From Perognathus longimembris pacificus (lineage: Eukaryota; Chordata; Mammalia; Rodentia; Heteromyidae), in assembly GCF_023159225.1 (NCBI RefSeq), contig NC_063167.1, positions 7,843,734 through 7,907,733 of the forward strand: a DNA stretch of 64,000 nucleotides, given 5' to 3'. Made by a program: the position numbers and the translations under genes. The notes beneath the pieces were generated by a model. It searched no databases. It saw only the letters and a list, made by a program, of their open reading frames with translations, and was not told the origin of the DNA. Of the stretch, positions 20,201 to 41,629 are shown one piece after another; position 1 is the stretch's first letter; the number at the start of each line of letters is the position of its first letter.

Positions 20201-20859
20201 CAAACCAACCAAACAACAAATCTCCATGGCACAACTTCACTCAGGGTCAAAGTCATAGCTGGTTCTGCATCAGAGGGGGACTCCTGGACCACTCCCAGCC
20301 CACCGTTCAAGCCTGTCCCCCAAAGCACCCAGCCCCCCAACATTTGACCCACAGGACCCCAAGACACTCCTGGTGACAAAAAGAGGAAGGCTCCAGTAAT
20401 TGGCTAGATGAGGTACATGGAACCCTGGTGGCCATCGCCTTTGGGTCTCTGGAAGTTTCCAGGCTCCTGTGGATCCTTTTTTTGGGGGGAGGGAGAGGAC
20501 AGGGGGAAGACTCAGCCATCAACTTAAGCATACTCCTCCCTCCCTCCCACCCTCCCACCCTCCCTCCCTTCCTTCCTTTCTTTCCAGTCCTGGGGCTTGA
20601 ACTCAAGGTCTGGGCACTGTCCTTGAGCTTCTTTTGCTCAAGGCTAGCACTCTACCTCTAGAGACACAGCGCCACTTCCAGCTTTTTCTGTTCATGTGGT
20701 GCTGAGGAATCGAACCCAGGGCTTCATGCATGCTAGGCAAGTGCTCTACCACTAGGCCACATTCCCAGCCCTTAACGCATATTTCTAATTGCTTCAGAAG
20801 AAGGTGCTTCTCCCAAGTCAGGTGGGGTCGGGGCTCTCAGGCCCAAACTATGTGCTGTG

Positions 20860-34314: not shown

Positions 34315-34720
34315 ACTGGGGATGTAGCTCAGTAGTAGAGCACTTGCCTAGCATATGCAAGGTCTGGAGTTCTATCCCCAGTACGGAGAAACACAAATGG
34401 AAGCAAAAAGCTGGTCGTGGCGGTTCCCACCTGTACTCTTCCCGAGTAGAAAATTGGGACGACTGAAGTGGAAGGCCATACCTATCTCGACCAATAAAAA
34501 GCCGGACATGTAGATTCACGCTTGTCCTTCCAGCTCTATGCTGCTGGAAGCCTAAATAGGAAATCAAGGTCTAGGCTGGATGAACATGAACCAGAGACTG
34601 TATTTCCAAAATAACTAAGTCCAAAAGGGCTTGGGGTCTGGCTCAAATGGCAGAGTTCCTGCCTGGCAACTTAGAACCCCTGAGTACAATTCCTAGTACC
34701 ACCCAAAATAAAAGAGCAAA
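34315..34720 (+). mobile_element. ID-like SINE and degenerate composite copy
   Basis: GGGGATGTAGCTCAGTAGTA and GGAGTTCTATCCCCAGTACG mark a tRNA-like ID half. The later part carries GGCTCAAATGGCAGAG. Confidence 0.65.
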
Positions 34721-35869
34721 CAAGCCAAACCAACCAACCCCCTGAAAAACCCCAAACGGCAACGAACAACAACAAAACACATTATCCCCAAATCAAAAGG
34801 AAAAAAAAAGTAAGTCCAATAACCCACTCTACCCGACAGCATCAGAAAGCACCTCTGCGTACAGCACAGAGGATCCTGACAGTGAGCCTCTGTCCATCTG
34901 TCCATCCATCTGTCCAACCGGAGAGGAGACTGGAAGTTGTGTGTCCTCATCCTGGTCAGGCCCTTCTCCGGCCTGGTTCAGCAACCCGCACTTGTAAGGT
35001 AGGGATAATACCAGTCTCCACCTCTAGAGGGTGCAGTGGGCTAAAAATTCTATTGCTGCTGTGGCTGCATTGCCATGGGAACCCGGTGGCCACCATTTCA
35101 TTCCAGTGCTCACTGCAAATGGCTGTTGACCCTGGGCATGGAGGAGTCCTAGGCGAAGGGCAGCTCTGTTCAGTAGCTGTGGTAGGCTGTGGCTTTCGCC
35201 AATGTCAGAACAAAACTGGACCCTCTACCTGCTGTCCTCGCGGGCCCCATCCAGACTCCATCCTAGTCTCAGCGAAGCCACATGCCGATGGAGATGGCAG
35301 AAGGGCAGGTTTGGAGCTTTCCTTGACCTGTGTGTGCCTCAGAGGCCCACGCCGGAGCAAAAGAAGCTCATGAGGTACAACTGCATGCAGAAGGCAAATG
35401 GCGCCCGGGCTTTTTTTTTCTGGTTGGCCTTGCTATAGTTTGCATGATGAACGTCCTGTCAAGGACCCATTACGTTTGGAGGCCCCAGCGAGACAATCCA
35501 CCTGTACGGCAACGGGCCTTGGCCCTCAGGGGGTGACATTTCTCAGCCCCCAAGGTTTCCCCAGCCTCCCTCGAGCAGTTTCCCGAGGACCAATGTGGAA
35601 ACCCTCCCTGGGGGAGTCTGGGCAGGCTTGTAGGCCTGCACCCGGGGACCCTTAGTGAAAGGCTGGACACGGCACTGAAATCTGAGGCTGGGATGGGACG
35701 TTGCTTGTGCCTCCTGAGACTTCTGGGACTTCTTTGAGAAATCATCTGGGACTTCCTGGAGAGGTCATCTGGTAGATGTAGGCCATGTGGGCTGTCTGTG
35801 GCTACTTGCCTGAGTTTGTTTGTTACTAATTCTATCTGTGTCCTTTATACACCTCCACGCACTCCTTTT

Positions 35870-36284: not shown

Positions 36285-36544
36285 TGTAAGCTTATAGAAT
36301 GTTCCCCGGCCCATAAGCTCTGCCCTTGGCAATGCAACTCTGCCCCTGGCTACCTGAGGGGCAGGTGGAGCACCTCCCACCTTAGTTGCATGAGGGTATA
36401 AAGATCCCCCTAAAAGAGAGTTCAGGTGCCATTTTCCTCTCCTCTGTGGGAACTTGGCCTTGCCGGTCCTGCTGGCAATAAACTCTTTTGCTCTACGTGA
36501 CTTTGTCTATGGTCTGTGGTTCTTCTGGGACAATTTTCCTTTCA
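36285..36544 (+). mobile_element. solo LTR inside gag
   Basis: 260 bp from TG to CA. It has a TATA box (GGGTATAAAGA near 36,395) and AATAAA at about 36,478. Flanked on both sides by AGCAA (36,280-36,284 and 36,545-36,549), a 5-bp target duplication. The gag capsid reading resumes right after it, so this LTR jumped into the older ERV. Confidence 0.85.
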
Positions 36545-36549
36545 AGCAA

Positions 36550-37215
36550 CTGCTGTATGTGCTTTTTACCTTGGAAGAAAGGGAGCGTATTCATCCAGCA
36601 TAATGCCTTGAAGGCGGTCCTTGGACTAGATGGCTCCCCCACTGATGACCCAGTCCATTTGGAATGAATCTTCCCCCTGACTCACCCAAGCTGGGACTAC
36701 AACAGTGATGGAGGTAGGGAGGCATTTACCAGTTATCGCCAGACTCTGTTAGCAGGGATATGGGCAGTGGCTAGGAAGCCAACTACTTTATCTAAGGTGA
36801 ATGAGACTGTACCACTCCCCAGTGAACCCTCTGCTGCTTTTCTCTATAGGACCTATACACCTATAGATCCTGAGGCCCCAGAGAATCGAAGAGCCCTACA
36901 TATGGCCTTCGTTACCCAGTTGGCCCCAGATATTAGGAAAAAAGCTTCAAAAGCTAGAAGGCTTTGAGGAAAAGGTGTTATCTGAAATAGTAGCAGTTGC
37001 CCAGTGTGTGTTTGATATCAGAGACACACTAGAGGAAAAGCTGTTACAAAAGGCAGTTTAAGTTTTAGTAGCAACACTAGGACAGGGATCAAGAAGCCCT
37101 CAGTGGTGGCATAACTCATTTGCAAATGGAAGTAGGGAACCTCTAGGATGAGACCAATGTGCTTATTGCAGGCAAAATACACATTGGAAAGGGGAATGTC
37201 CAAGGAGGAGAAAGA
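36550..37215 (+). pseudogene. ERV gag remnant, capsid to nucleocapsid zinc knuckle
   Basis: Contains the capsid major homology-like part (PEAPENRRALHMAFVTQ ... APDIRKK) and a nucleocapsid knuckle CAYCRQNTHWKGEC near 37,155-37,200. The spacing C-X2-C-X4-H-X4-C is kept, but the glycine before His is Thr. Several frameshifts and stops. Confidence 0.78.
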
Positions 37216-37257
37216 TGGGAAATGACAGGTTAAAAGCACACTAACTGCCGGGGAAGT

Positions 37258-37603
37258 ATGTTCCTACCTCCTGGGAGACATGAAAAGGAGCTTGAGGCTC
37301 TAAAATCCAACTTTGTTGAACTGAAAGAGCAGTTAGCAGAGCAGACACAGAAGTGCCATGTCAGAGAAGAAGAGGTCCAGGAAAGTGAGCAGGAAAAGGA
37401 CAGGCTCAAGAAGGAAACTGTTACACATGCTCTGATGGGGAATGCCCGGGAAACGGAAAGAGCATTAGGCAGAAAAACAGAAGAGCTCAACAAACAGTTG
37501 AAAGATGTCACAAAAATAGAGGTGAAGAACAAGGAAGAGAAGGTACACGGGGAAAAGGCCAAGCAGATGGCCAAGCTCCTCGCCACACAAAGTCGAATGC
37601 TGG
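37258..37603 (+). pseudogene. UACA: UACA-derived coiled-coil segment (5' part)
   Basis: Reads as a coiled coil with LKEQLAEQTQKC and RALGRKTEELNKQLKD, which I recognise as UACA (uveal autoantigen with coiled coils and ankyrin repeats; a cytoplasmic/nuclear adaptor linked to apoptosome control). The first few codons from 37,258 may be ERV. No introns, so RNA-derived. The same open frame runs on into the HDAC-like segment, to a stop at 37,902. Parent named from memory; RAI14, a relative, was considered, but the 3' part fits UACA better. Confidence 0.7.
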
Positions 37604-37878
37604 AGCAGCAGATCCAGCGGCAGATCCTCACCGCCGAGTTCCGGTGGCAACAGGAACAGCGCTCCCAGCAGCAGGAAGCTCAGGTGCATGAGCACATCAA
37701 GCAGCAGCCGGAGCTGGAGAGACGCAGCGCCTTGAGCAGAAGCTGTAGCAGCTCAAGGACAGGGAAAGGGCAAAGAGATGGATGTGGCCACACCACACCA
37801 GTACCCCTGGACCACCCGTCCCCGCTGCTGGAGCAGCAGCTACAGCAGGAGCTCCTGGCCCTGAGGCAGAAGCAGCAA
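37604..37878 (+). pseudogene. HDAC4: class IIa histone deacetylase (HDAC4-like) segment in permuted order
   Basis: Two parts of the glutamine-rich N-terminal coiled coil of HDAC4. First (37,604 to about 37,778): QIQRQILTAEF, then QEAQVHEHIKQQ, then in another frame EQKL and QLKDRERAK. Second (about 37,779-37,878): DVAT-like start, then EQQLQQELLALRQKQQ. In HDAC4 the second part comes first and runs straight into the first (...LLALKQKQQ-IQRQILIAEF...). The order here is therefore reversed, with a junction where the end of the KNKEKGKE region meets DVAT. Only the N-terminal scaffold region is present, with no deacetylase domain. Sequence is spliced and shows a frameshift and one in-frame stop. 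Confidence 0.68.
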
Positions 37879-38200
37879 GTCCCAATGGAACAGAGGCCCT
37901 GAACACGTCTCTCAATAGCACACTTGAGAACTCAAAGGAGGAGCTGAAGAGCAAGCAAAGCTGCCTGAGAGAAGGAGCAGCAGGCTGCCACCAACAGCAA
38001 CTGGACAACCCAAGGAACTCTTTTTGTGTCCCCTCTCCCCCGCCACACACCCGGGCAGGACACTGCCATGTTAACGAGGACTTGGAGAAGGAGGTTGGGA
38101 TAAAGAAAGCAAGCTTGGGAGAAAGGGAGGAAGAAGTCTCCTAGCTCTAGACTGAGCTTCAGAGTACTAACTAGGTGTTAAAGAAATTAGAGACCCCTGA
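37879..38200 (+). pseudogene. UACA: UACA-derived coiled-coil segment (3' part)
   Basis: Resumes with VPMEQ, then shifts frame to EALNTSLNSTLENSKEELKS, later NEDLEKEVGIKKASL and LKKLET. These match, in order, the UACA stretch that starts HVPLEQVEALKKSLN and continues to EKEVGIIKASLREK. Broken by frameshifts and stops; loses similarity near 38,190. No poly(A) tail seen at its end. Confidence 0.72.
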
Positions 38201-38439
38201 GAAACAGCAGAGCTGATCAGGCAGCTTGGGAGGCCGCCCTAAAGCCAGTGGGGCCCCCTAGAGCTACTAGTCATCAAGATTAAAAGAAGAGGCATGAAAA
38301 AGCTGTGCTAACAATTATGACAGCGTGGAGAGTGCACTTGCGAAGAAAGGTCACAGGCTCAAAGTCTTTTATGTTTATATCTAAATTGCTCCGGGCCACT
38401 GCCTAAAACTGTCTGGAAAGACAGTGGGGACAAGGCTGG

Positions 38440-39235
38440 AAAGACAGAACATGTGGAGAGGAACCTCACCTGGTGAATTTTGGGAAGTGGACTTCACGGA
38501 GGTAAAGCCTGGAAAGTCAGGGGAATCGGTATCTGTTAGTACTCGTTCTTTTTCAGGCTGGGCTGAGGCATGCCCAACAAACACAGAATCCGCTCAGAAA
38601 ACAGGCAAAACCTTTGTGAAATAATTCCTCCATTTGGCTTACCACTAGCAATGGGGTCCCACCATGGCCCTGCCTTCATGGCCCAAGTCACTCAATTATT
38701 AGCTAAAGCCCTAAGAATAAATTGGAAGTTACATTGTATCTATAGACCTCAGAGTCCAGGACAGGTGGAATGAATGAATAGTGTCTTAAAGGAAACTTTA
38801 ACTAAATTAATCACAGAGACTGGCCATGACTGGGTAAGCCTCCTCTCCTCTGCTCTTCTCTGAGAAAGATGCACCCCATATGTTAAAGGGTTCAGTCCCT
38901 TTGAAATAACTTATGGTAGACCACAGCAATGTCTAACCACAATCCTGTACAGTCACTGCACGCTTTGCGACGTGTTCTTTCACGTGCCCGTCCTTTGGTG
39001 GCCCAGGCCCACCGGCCTCCTGAGAAAAACTCCATCAACCCTTTCTTGCCTGGACAGCTGGTGTGGGTTAAGAGGCATCCTGCTCCTGAACTGGAACCCG
39101 AGAATGGTAGGGGCCTTACTCAGTAGTGCTAACTACACCGTCAGCTAGTAAGGTTGCAGGAAAACAGCACTGGATCCAAGTGTAATGGGCAGTGGGACAA
39201 TGTCCAGAGACAGCTGCAAGATGGACTGTTAATGA
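38440..39235 (+). pseudogene. ERV integrase remnant
   Basis: Gammaretroviral integrase core: FWEVDFTEVKPGKSG carries the first catalytic Asp. The second catalytic Asp is replaced (GSHHGPAF where GSDNGPAF is usual). PQSPGQVE keeps the Glu but is followed at once by a stop. The C-terminal part has LVWVKRHPAPELEP. Clearly inactive. Confidence 0.82.
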
Positions 39236-39306: not shown

Positions 39307-39508
39307 TGTTTTTTTTTTTTTTTTTGGCAGTCTTGGAGCTTGAACTCAGGGCCTGAGCACTGTCCCTGGCTTCTTTTTGCTCAAGGCTAGCACTTGAGGC
39401 ACAGCGCCACTTCCAGCTTTTTCTATATATGTGGTGCTGAGGAATTGAACCCAGGGCTTCGTGTATATGAGGCGAGCACTTTACCACCGGGCCACATTCC
39501 CAGCCCCC
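39307..39508 (-). mobile_element. IDL-Geo SINE inserted in the ERV
   Basis: Antisense dimer with poly(T) head and CCACATTCCCAGCCCC end. It splits ERV sequence and is therefore younger than the ERV. Confidence 0.88.
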
Positions 39509-39689
39509 TGCTTGTTCTTAATGTGTTACTGTGGGGAGAGCTTTTCTGCCCATACCTCTGTACTGTACAGGTGGCCTGTTATTATTTGTAGGCTTTGCCA
39601 CATTTTTGTTTGATGGGGGTGGGAGGAGTTTAGGATTTGGCCCAAAAAGAGAATCAATGATTTGATTGGATATAAAAACCAGTGGGGAA

Positions 39690-40222
39690 TGTGATAACCA
39701 GTGGGCCAGGAAGTCCCGCCCTGTGCTGGTGCTATTGCCATGATGGCACTTTCAAGTGGGCCAGGCTGCTGGAGGGGGTGGGGCGGCAGAGGGCCGGAGC
39801 ACATAGATAGGCTGCCTGTGCGGAGGAAAGGAGGAGAGGGGAGAGAGGGAAGCGGCGAGAGGGGAGAGAGGGAAGCGGCGAGAGGTGCTTGCCCGGGCTG
39901 AGCTGAGTGGTGAGGTGTCTGGGCCTGCTGAGAGTCCTGAGGCCTGAGGAGAAGTCTGAAGCCTGACATGGAGAGGCCCAGGCCCGAGGCCTGCCTTTGG
40001 GAGAGGCCTGAGGCCTGAGGAGAGGCCTAGAGGCCCGAGGCCTGAGGAGAGGCAAGGCCTTCCGGAACAAGGAATAGAAAGCAGCTCACTCTTTTTGTAG
40101 GTTTGGGGGTTGAGGCTGTTGGAGGTGTGGAGGTTGGGGCTGGTCCGGGTTCTGGGTTTTGGGTTGTAAATAAAACTCCTTTCCACCTTTAGCCATGCCT
40201 CCGTGGGTTTTTGTCACTCTCA
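39690..40222 (+). mobile_element. candidate 3' LTR of the ERV
   Basis: Follows a purine-rich tract (AGTGGGGAA) and starts TGTGATAACC. AATAAA lies near 40,170. The middle is G+A-rich with internal duplications: GAGAGGGAAGCGGCGAGAGG twice, and GAGGCCTGAGG units repeated. The right border (CA at about 40,222) is uncertain and no 5' partner LTR exists in the window. Confidence 0.5.
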
Positions 40223-41629
40223 GGTCACTACTAACCCAAATGAACCTTTCCTCTTCATAAGTTGATTATCTCAGGCGCTTTGTCATAGTCACAGAAAGCT
40301 GTGAGTCTTGCCTGTCCAAGAGCATCATGGTAACACAGATCACTTGGCTTTGCTAGGAAACTGAGTCAAGCAGATGGAAGGAGAGAAAGGAGACAGAGAC
40401 CTCATCAGACTAGAACAGGCTTGAATGAGCACTGCAGAGAAGCTCCAGGGTCTGAGAAACAAAGAGCTGCAAGTGTGTGTGTGTGGGGGGGGGGGCGGGG
40501 AGGGCTTAGGTTTTTATGCATTCTAAGGTGAGACTCCTCCAGAAATCCTCTGTGTTGCCCTGCTGGGGGTTTATTGTTCGAACTGTCCTATGTAGGTGTT
40601 TACAGTGTGAACAGTCCTGTCTGGTGGGAAGGACCATCAGGCATTTCAGAAAAGGACAGGTGTGAGGTTTTCCTGAGAATCAGGAGAGGTCCCCAGGAGA
40701 GGGTGGTCAAGGAGCCTGGACCATGAGAACCACATGGAGCTATGAGAACAAAGCAGATTTCCAGCAGGCTTCTACTGGCGGATAGAGATGCTCTTCTTCC
40801 CAAGCCATTGGCACACAGTGTGGGTTCAGTAAGCACTATTGTTCTCCAAGGGGCCCTGACCTTTCTTTTCCTCTCCAGAAGGTGTGGCATGGTGGACAGA
40901 GGGTTATCTATCTTGTCGGTGGTGTGCTCCCCGTCCCCCTACCACATCTAGCTTCTTCTTACCCTACTAAAATCTCCTGGCTGGTCTATCTTGGGGAGGA
41001 CACCCCCCACCCCCGTGTCCTCAGGGACCTCTCCAGCTGGATTCAAGATGATGCCCCACTTCCATGCCTCCCACCACCCACAACATCTCAGGTGGTCTGC
41101 TGACAGTTCATAATTTAAATCCAAACTCACACAATGGAAGCACATAGGAAAGCTGGCGGCAGAACCACACCGTCTACAACTGTGTTGCCTTGCTTTGTGC
41201 CATCAGCTTTTCTTTGGAGACAAGGAGATGGAGCCATGGAAGGCTTAAGTAAGCTTGCTCATAGTCTCAGATTTAGTTGGTGGAGGAGCCTGACACAAGA
41301 CCAGTACGTTTTCTCCCAGGGCTCAAGTTCTTAAGCTTATCCTAACTGACTTTGTTTTCTAACGGTAGCATTGTGACTGTTTGGAGTATTGCTATTGTAA
41401 TTTCAATGATTAAATGAGAATGTACATGCACAGTGCTTAACATAATATTAAGTATGTAATAGGATTTTAACCCTGGCATGACTAGTACACTAGCCAGTTT
41501 CCCAGACTCTCAGTTTAAGGTAACCCAGAAACACCAACCAAAGGCTCTTTGTCTGGAAGATGCTCAAGGAAGGTTTGAATTTCTTCTTTTTCTCCTGCTT
41601 TCCTTCCCCATCCAGATGAATTTGTGGTA

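What the first reader, a model, noticed from the sequence alone, without database searches (positions are those of the whole stretch)
37258..38200. Host-derived UACA/HDAC4-like sequence in place of pro-pol inside a gammaretroviral ERV
Seen: a gag zinc knuckle ends near 37,200 and integrase core reading starts near 38,440. Between them lie spliced, coiled-coil readings, not protease or reverse transcriptase. Known: acutely transforming retroviruses arise when viral RNA recombines with a cellular mRNA, replacing part of gag-pol, and such viruses are rarely found as genomic fossils. Inference: this is a fossil transducing provirus carrying UACA and HDAC4 pieces. The alternative is a LINE-made retrocopy that landed in an ERV and was followed by deletion. 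No poly(A) tail or target duplication is visible around the insert, which favours the first idea.
Basis: partly seen in the sequence, partly recalled or inferred. Interest (0 to 1): 0.88.

Follow-up and report, generated by a model that had tools for sequence, protein, structure and literature searches.

The report
Retrovirus fossil carrying two host genes
A pocket-mouse genome holds dozens of fossil copies of a defective retrovirus that first swapped its polymerase region for a piece of the host gene UACA and then picked up a back-spliced (probably circular) piece of the host gene HDAC4, so the stages of gene capture can be read from the copies.

Summary
In the window a gammaretrovirus-type gag runs into UACA at 37213; UACA and HDAC4 fill the place of RT-RNase H; pol resumes at about 38196. 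The genome (probably Perognathus longimembris) holds at least 41 proviral places with this insert; 36 were examined. They fall into nested stages: (1) gag-UACA-pol with 1.3 kb of UACA and no HDAC4 (1 complete, 1 truncated); (2) shortened UACA plus HDAC4 (12); (3) a later deletion form (21); 1 is too short to place. Two relatives without UACA keep reverse transcriptase or RNase H sequence there.

The HDAC4 piece is permuted. It consists of two exons spliced to each other and joined back exactly at the splice sites: the end of exon n+1 runs into the start of exon n in 32 of 32 copies that keep that end. Its two edges meet UACA at one 8-nt microhomology (GCAGAAGC). The simplest account is that reverse transcriptase left the UACA-bearing viral RNA, copied one full turn of a circular HDAC4 RNA and returned. 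A scrambled linear RNA is not excluded. The elements probably spread with a helper. Any protein function is unproven.

The parts
35475..35494 (+). primer-binding-site-like stretch; no 5' LTR was found upstream of it
   Evidence: match at 35477 with 1 mismatch; a similar motif in 18 of 36 copies at up to 3 mismatches; no LTR match upstream
36767..36964 (+). gag p30 (capsid) remnant
   Evidence: Pfam Gag_p30 E 1.5e-10
37158..37199 (+). gag nucleocapsid CCHC zinc knuckle, in the same frame as the start of UACA
   Evidence: translation; sequence
37213..37325 (+). UACA segment 1 (host exon, L010 reversed, 640-754)
   Evidence: blastn 81%, E 5e-26
37318..37610 (+). UACA segment 2 (host 1293-1615), joined to segment 1 across a 546-nt in-frame deletion
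   Evidence: blastn 78%, E 7e-75; joint shown
37604..37701 (+). HDAC4 exon n, 3' part (host exon n 148-245)
   Evidence: blastn 87%; Pfam HDAC4_Gln and PDB 2h8n
37702..37778 (+). HDAC4 exon n+1, 3' part (host 76-151); this copy lacks most of the 5' part of exon n+1
37778..37779 (+). back-splice joint: end of HDAC4 exon n+1 runs into start of exon n
37779..37877 (+). HDAC4 exon n, 5' part (with deletions in this copy)
   Evidence: blastn 94% for 37825-37877; 16 of 25 after the joint
37866..38195 (+). UACA segment 3 (host 1604-1943)
   Evidence: blastn 70%, E 2e-49
38196..38423 (+). pol resumes (taken as RNase H tail and region before the integrase core, inference); joint with UACA at AGAGAC
   Evidence: 90% to L057, a relative without UACA, over window 38213-38274
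38424..39110 (+). integrase remnant
   Evidence: rve and MLVIN_C weak, below cut-off; 45 genome matches to 38215-39100
36285..36545 (.). insertion not seen in the other copies that cover this place; looks like another element's solo LTR (inference)
   Evidence: sequence
39313..39500 (.). SINE-like insertion; 25 hits in the window, itself included
39690..40237 (+). 3' LTR, preceded by a polypurine-like stretch at 39682
   Evidence: related sequence at many places

Best explanation
A defective gammaretrovirus-type provirus lineage, probably helper-dependent, that captured two host genes by reverse-transcriptase template switching. Step 1: during copying of viral RNA, RT-RNase H (and, by position, protease) was replaced by 1.3 kb of UACA through short microhomologies in gag and pol. 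Step 2 (order of the two changes unknown): 546 nt of UACA were lost between short repeats, and reverse transcriptase jumped at GCAGAAGC onto a back-spliced HDAC4 RNA made of exons n and n+1, copied one whole 396-nt turn, and jumped back at the same GCAGAAGC. Step 3: further deletion forms arose. The forms were reverse-transcribed and integrated many times. Shown: the joints, exon borders, nested stages, dispersed copies. Inferred: that the HDAC4 RNA was circular, that the jumps happened during viral reverse transcription, and the helper.
For: Own-genome search: 38 proviral places by my count, plus 1 and 2 in all. Same UACA left edge (host 640-643) in 27 of 36 examined, right edge at host 1937-1952 in 20 of 36 (recount 89). 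L009 has UACA 640-1951 unbroken and no HDAC4; L037 has 640-1139 unbroken, then is truncated. L057 and L059 show no UACA in the 2.0-2.5 kb fetched; L059 holds RVT_1 (5.7e-9) and an RNase H-like domain (3e-9), L057 is 81-84% like L059 there and has RNase_H at 1e-4, below cut-off. Host HDAC4 exon n starts ..cacag|TGGACG and ends ATCAAG|gtgagc; exon n+1 ends AAAGAGA|gtgagt; they are 11,860 bp apart. Copies read AAAGAGA|TGGATG or close: 32 of 32 with that end match exon n (16-22 of 25) over exon n+2 (8-13) and intron (5-10); at the forward joint 30 of 30 match exon n+1 (8-12 of 12) over intron (0-2). GCAGAAGC is intact at the 3' edge in 9 of 11 copies shown and at the 5' edge in 4 of 14; L002, L008, L013 and L026 have both. 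A host-only one-turn prediction aligns in one piece in 9 of the 11 stage-2 copies given, of 12. Tree of 24 of the 36: stage 1 outside, stages 2+3 one clade (97), stage 3 nested (100).
Against: No RNA data: a linear scrambled or trans-spliced HDAC4 RNA would leave the same joint. The 32 copies descend from one event and are not 32 observations of capture. UACA lies within one exon, so its RNA origin rests on the joints, not on missing introns. At the 5' edge 10 of 14 copies differ from GCAGAAGC, the window among them. Clear LTR pairs were found in 4 of 10 copies tested (L008, L009, L012, L013); L002 and L016 are weak or confused by repeats; the window, L003, L004 and L015 gave none. Clean target-site duplications were not found (L009: 3 of 4 flank bases agree). 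The backbone inside stage 2 is poorly supported (28-59) and stage 2b is not one clade, because L005 falls inside it. In L008 the LTR distance (0.248) is far above twice its insert branch (0.041). Protease was not shown in the relatives.
Confidence: 0.87

Rival explanations
1. The HDAC4 piece came from a linear RNA: either a scrambled or trans-spliced transcript (exon n+1 to exon n) or two separate template switches on ordinary mRNA.
For: The DNA joints alone cannot tell a circle from a scrambled linear RNA.
Against: Two switches on normal mRNA would have to hit both splice borders exactly and also end where they began. The host gene shows no second exon n in 80 kb downstream. Scrambled linear RNAs are generally rarer than circular ones (recalled).
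Confidence: 0.15
2. A LINE-1 machine made a UACA/HDAC4 retrocopy that landed in an ERV, later deleted.
For: HDAC4 introns are missing, as in any retrocopy.
Against: Longest A run in the window's insert is 5; joints with gag and pol lie at microhomologies shared by the copies; an HDAC4-free stage exists; copies sit between viral sequences at many places.
Confidence: 0.03
3. The copies multiplied only by segmental duplication of one odd provirus.
For: Some clearly did: C4944 and C1:57453040 map identically, three C7 copies are near alike, and C21/C4212 carry units spaced about 9,402 bp.
Against: Upstream flanks of 8 copies show no cross-match by megablast at E 1e-10; LTR pairs exist in some copies; terminal branches differ widely.
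Confidence: 0.04
4. The captured reading frame was translated as a gag-UACA-HDAC4-pol fusion and kept by selection for part of its history.
For: Nucleocapsid and UACA join in frame; the 546-nt and 723-nt deletions and the 396-nt HDAC4 piece keep frame. Shared changes in stage 2a lean to third codon positions (8, 12, 21; p 0.039), while stage 3, whose deletion shifts the frame, shows none (44, 40, 41; p 0.90).
Against: p is 0.073 and 0.080 in two wider groupings, and all copies together are flat (82, 78, 88); the pol frame was read by a recalled motif; stage 3 spread although out of frame; the frame tally (5 of 6) was made after seeing the data.
Confidence: 0.2

Closest known systems
ERV-Hako in primates (PMC11905727; passages read)
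   Same: ERV with several copies holding parts of host genes (SUSD6, SPHKAP)
   Different: The passages describe 3'-UTR parts of one gene per subtype, in a group II ERV; here two genes sit in one element, stepwise, with a back-splice joint, in place of RT
Crocodilian CrocERV29 (KIT-ligand) and CrocERV31 (nectin3) (PMC4299795; passages read)
   Same: ERV lineages with captured host mRNA and several copies
   Different: KIT-ligand lies between pol and env and nectin3 replaces env; no second capture inside the first is described in the passages read
Mouse circRFWD2-derived pseudogenes (reviews PMC5345220 and PMC5408686; passages read; original paper not held)
   Same: Back-spliced exon joint turned into many genomic copies, most without poly(A); LTR sequence reported in the flanks of circRNA-derived retrocopies
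   Different: In the passages read the route is called unknown or possibly LTR-mediated; here the carrier provirus, both jump sites and the stage before capture are visible
Acutely transforming retroviruses (recalled)
   Same: Host sequence replaces part of gag-pol and may be fused in frame to gag; replication needs a helper
   Different: No known oncogene, no evidence of transformation; two unrelated host pieces
Maize Bs1 LTR element (recalled, not looked up)
   Same: One LTR element carrying parts of several host genes
   Different: Plant element; no back-splice joint known to me

Membership tests
Gammaretrovirus-type (class I) ERV | Gag_p30 capsid | tested here: met
   Pfam 1.5e-10
Gammaretrovirus-type (class I) ERV | Integrase core and MLV-type C-terminal domain downstream | tested here: inconclusive
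   rve 0.0011 and 0.024, MLVIN_C 0.032, all below cut-off in the decayed window copy; multicopy DNA matches
Gammaretrovirus-type (class I) ERV | LTRs, PBS and polypurine stretch | tested here: met
   clear LTR pairs in 4 of 10 copies tested; PBS-like motif in 18 of 36 copies at up to 3 mismatches; PPT-like 39682. The window copy shows only the 3' LTR. PBS tRNA not identified
Host-gene-transducing retroelement | Host sequence inside the provirus at joints shared by dispersed copies | tested here: met
Host-gene-transducing retroelement | Relatives without the host gene keep the replaced viral genes | tested here: met
   L059 with RT and RNase H, L057 alike; protease not shown
circRNA-derived retrosequence | Back-splice joint at exact exon borders, introns absent | tested here: met
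   32 of 32 copies with exon n+1 3' end; forward joint 30 of 30
circRNA-derived retrosequence | The parent RNA is circular | not testable with these tools
   no RNA data; a 213-bp, 96% inverted repeat pair lies in the flanking introns today but may be younger than the capture
Acutely transforming retrovirus | Captured gene transforms cells | not tested
   no such evidence
Autonomous retrovirus | Own protease, RT and env | tested here: not met
   in the window UACA-HDAC4 fills the RT place, and under 600 nt, a SINE-like insertion included, lie between the integrase remnant and the 3' LTR; the four ORFs scanned there gave no env match. Env was not searched in the other copies

The most novel reading that the evidence does not exclude
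A retroviral reverse transcriptase, in the middle of copying a viral RNA, switched onto a circular host RNA by 8 nt of microhomology, copied exactly one turn and switched back to the same spot; the product then spread through a mammalian germline, with the stage before it preserved in the same genome.
Probability: 0.72. Interest if true: 0.92.

Novelty: new variant of a known kind. Interest (0 to 1): 0.86.

Why it matters
Fossil host-gene captures by retroviruses are known, but often only the end product is at hand. Here the relative without the gene, the first capture, the second capture and later deletion forms lie in one genome, so each joint can be compared with both parents. The HDAC4 joint suggests that circular RNAs can serve as recombination templates for retroviruses. 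If so, it would give a concrete route for circRNA-derived sequences, which reviews call unknown or possibly LTR-mediated (PMC5345220, PMC5408686, passages). I found no report of a circRNA captured inside an ERV in the capped listings, nor of an HDAC4 circRNA by name; most subscription papers are not in that library.

Tried and rejected
Rejected: a LINE retrocopy; chance similarity (200 shuffles); reading L010 and L009 alike as the host gene. At first both looked like the parent; one search showed C20 to be the host gene (open frame 1163 aa, 77% over residues 411-1326), and L009 to be a stage-1 provirus flanked by gag and pol. The weak gag match at the edge of L010 turned out to be UACA, which moved the joint to 37213.

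Led nowhere: protein searches for the chimera in other species (only P0121 appears as a chimera; the other 5 hits are listed with the HDAC4_Gln domain and were not inspected further). No other rodent genome can be searched here. Window 5' LTR not found. The PBS tRNA pattern gave no match. No paper naming an HDAC4 circRNA found. The original circRNA-pseudogene paper is not held. An FAM8A1 precedent was recalled; one search lists papers with the term, none was opened. Stage-3 copies, and all copies together, show no codon-position bias. The arrays on C15/C4565-C4568 match the integrase part and were not explained. Of the gag-only places, C24:15065097, C2:72732181, C7:80918 and C5:56214843 were not looked at.

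Full report
What is in the window. Host-derived sequence lies between a gag remnant and an integrase remnant. Gag_p30 is found at 36767-36964 and a CCHC zinc knuckle starts at 37158. Compared with the host genes of the same genome, the insert reads: UACA 37213-37325 (host 640-754), UACA 37318-37610 (host 1293-1615), HDAC4 exon n 3' part 37604-37701, HDAC4 exon n+1 3' part 37702-37778, HDAC4 exon n 5' part 37779-37877, UACA 37866-38195 (host 1604-1943). Scores far exceed 200 shuffles. Pol resumes at about 38196. A PBS-like stretch at 35475 and a polypurine-like stretch at 39682 with a 3' LTR at 39690-40237 frame the element; no 5' LTR was found.

Which genome. The window lies at G000:C7:7843734-7907733, in a genome of 2.21 Gb. 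Protein P0121, annotated 'histone deacetylase 4-like' in Perognathus longimembris pacificus, is a copy of this chimera: against L003 on C23 it has 136 identical residues, no mismatch and one 11-residue gap. The genome is therefore probably that species or a very close one (inference).

The host parents. UACA lies on C20 (42876751-42899586, minus strand), with a large exon open over 1163 aa. HDAC4 lies on C4. Exon n is C4:1699390-1699634 (245 nt..cacag|TGGACG...ATCAAG|gtgagc). Exon n+1 is C4:1711495-1711645 (151 nt..tgtag|CAGCAG...AAAGAGA|gtgagt). The following exon starts GTGCCGTGG. The two exons total 396 nt, a multiple of three, and 11,860 bp of intron lie between them. No second copy of exon n appears in the 80 kb fetched downstream.

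The family of copies. The insert search lists 75 matching stretches, which I group into 40 places, 2 of them the host genes. One more came and two, so 41 proviral places; counts from this tool are lower bounds. I examined 36. The five not fetched are four units of the C4212 array and one unit on C21. Some are evident duplicates (C4944 with C1:57453040; three on C7; the C21/C4212/C4785/C12:62351480 group; C18 with C15:17398639). Collapsing these leaves roughly 26 by my count, not individually proven.

Stages. Stage 1, 2 of 36: L009 has UACA 640-1951 unbroken and no HDAC4; L037 has 640-1139 unbroken, then is truncated, so whether it ever held HDAC4 cannot be seen. Stage 2, 12 of 36 (L001-L008, L013, L016, L025, L026): HDAC4 present; UACA 754 joined to 1300 in eight of them, while in the other four (L008, L013, L025, L026) a larger deletion joins UACA 644 to 1367 and hides that joint. 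Stage 3, 21 of 36: about 25 nt of exon n after the back-splice joint, then UACA 1744 (L012, L014, L015, L017-L024, L027, L028, L038-L043, L060, L061; 20 of the 21 joints printed). L044 is too short to place. L009 cannot be a later loss from stage 2, since it keeps UACA that stage 2 lacks. A tree on UACA columns with 24 of the 36 copies and the host gene as outgroup puts stage 1 outside, stages 2+3 in one clade (support 97) and stage 3 inside (100); the backbone within stage 2 is weak (28-59) and stage 2b is not a clean clade.

What UACA replaced. Two relatives show no UACA in the 2.0-2.5 kb fetched: L057 and L059. After gag, L059 holds reverse transcriptase (RVT_1, 5.7e-9) and an RNase H-like domain (3e-9); L057 is 81-84% like L059 there, with RNase_H at 1e-4, below cut-off, and then meets window 38213 at 90% identity about 2.17 kb after gag. 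So the capture took the place of RT-RNase H; protease, expected there too, was not shown. The joint with pol lies at AGAGAC, present in both UACA and L057; the joint with gag lies at AGA.

The HDAC4 joint. In the 32 of 36 copies that keep the 3' end of exon n+1, the next 25 nt match the start of exon n (16-22) better than exon n+2 (8-13) or the intron (5-10). The closest call is the window copy itself (16 against 13). At the forward joint, 30 of 30 copies with the end of exon n match exon n+1 (8-12 of 12) over the intron (0-2); the low values come from copies with deletions in exon n+1. These copies share one origin, so this is one event seen many times. The outer edges of HDAC4 meet UACA at GCAGAAGC, which both genes hold. 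It is intact at the 3' edge in 9 of 11 copies shown and at the 5' edge in 4 of 14; L002, L008, L013 and L026 have both, and the window's own 5' edge is changed. Example L002..ATGCAGAAGC|AGCAGATCC.. and ..CTGAAGCAGAAGC|AACACATCCC.. A sequence predicted from host parts alone (one turn of the 396-nt circle opened at that site) aligns in one piece to 9 of the 11 stage-2 copies given; L025 and L026 are split by later changes, and L006, alike to L005, was not given. The introns on either side of the two exons carry a 213-bp, 96% inverted repeat pair today. Such pairs favour circle formation (recalled), but this one may be younger than the capture.

How it most likely worked. Reverse transcriptase copies RNA from 3' to 5'. 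It would have copied the UACA part to GCAGAAGC, moved to the same eight bases in the HDAC4 circle, gone round once, met GCAGAAGC again and returned. This step is inferred. A linear scrambled RNA would give the same result and is kept as a rival (0.15). The window element has no place for RT or env, so a helper is inferred; env was not searched in the other copies.

Did it encode anything? The zinc knuckle and UACA join in frame, the 546-nt and 723-nt deletions and the HDAC4 turn keep the frame, and the pol joint reads in frame by a motif that I recalled; the stage-3 deletion does not keep it. Shared changes in stage 2a lean to third positions (8, 12, 21; p 0.039), with p 0.073 and 0.080 in two wider groupings; stage 3 shows 44, 40, 41 (p 0.90), all copies together 82, 78, 88; singletons are even (CpG sites and columns with under 4 copies dropped). 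This is a hint at most.

Age. LTR pair distances (K2P) are 0.142 (L013, 203 sites), 0.215 (L009, 362) and 0.248 (L008, 733); of 10 copies tested, clear pairs were seen in 4. With recalled rates of 2.2e-9 to 4.5e-9 per site and year this is 16-32, 24-49 and 28-56 million years. The L008 value conflicts with its short insert branch (0.041), so these are rough. The elements should be sought in other geomyoid rodents.

Known work. ERV-Hako holds parts of SUSD6 or SPHKAP (PMC11905727, passages). Crocodilian ERVs captured KIT-ligand and nectin3 (PMC4299795, passages). Mouse circRFWD2-derived pseudogenes number 33 highly credible copies, 39 of 42 related ones lack poly(A), and LTR sequence was reported in the flanks of circRNA-derived retrocopies (PMC5345220 and PMC5408686, passages; original not held). 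So both kinds of thing are known; an ERV with a back-splice joint, both jump sites and the preceding stage was not found in the capped listings.

Verdict.

Noticed in passing
G000:C4212:569800-608144 and G000:C21:38062527-38072664: Stage-3 chimera copies sit in tandem units spaced about 9,402 bp, so the provirus has become part of a larger tandem repeat.
   Followed up: partly
G000:C15:44112700-44115153 and contigs C4565-C4568: Several similar loci match the window's region before integrase and the integrase remnant from query base 68 on; no UACA or HDAC4 was found in the one stretch fetched (L062).
   Followed up: partly
L058 (G000:C17:12194500-12196500): Another deletion form: gag joined almost directly to integrase, without UACA.
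   Followed up: no
window 36285-36545: A stretch absent from the other copies that cover this place; it resembles a solo LTR of another element (AATAAA present).
   Followed up: no
window 34318-34380 (+) and 20697-20766 (-): Two tRNA-like matches just above Rfam's threshold, probably tRNA-derived SINEs (inference).
   Followed up: no
L066 870-1080 and L030 4625-4837: A 213-bp, 96% inverted repeat pair in the introns flanking HDAC4 exons n and n+1.
   Followed up: partly
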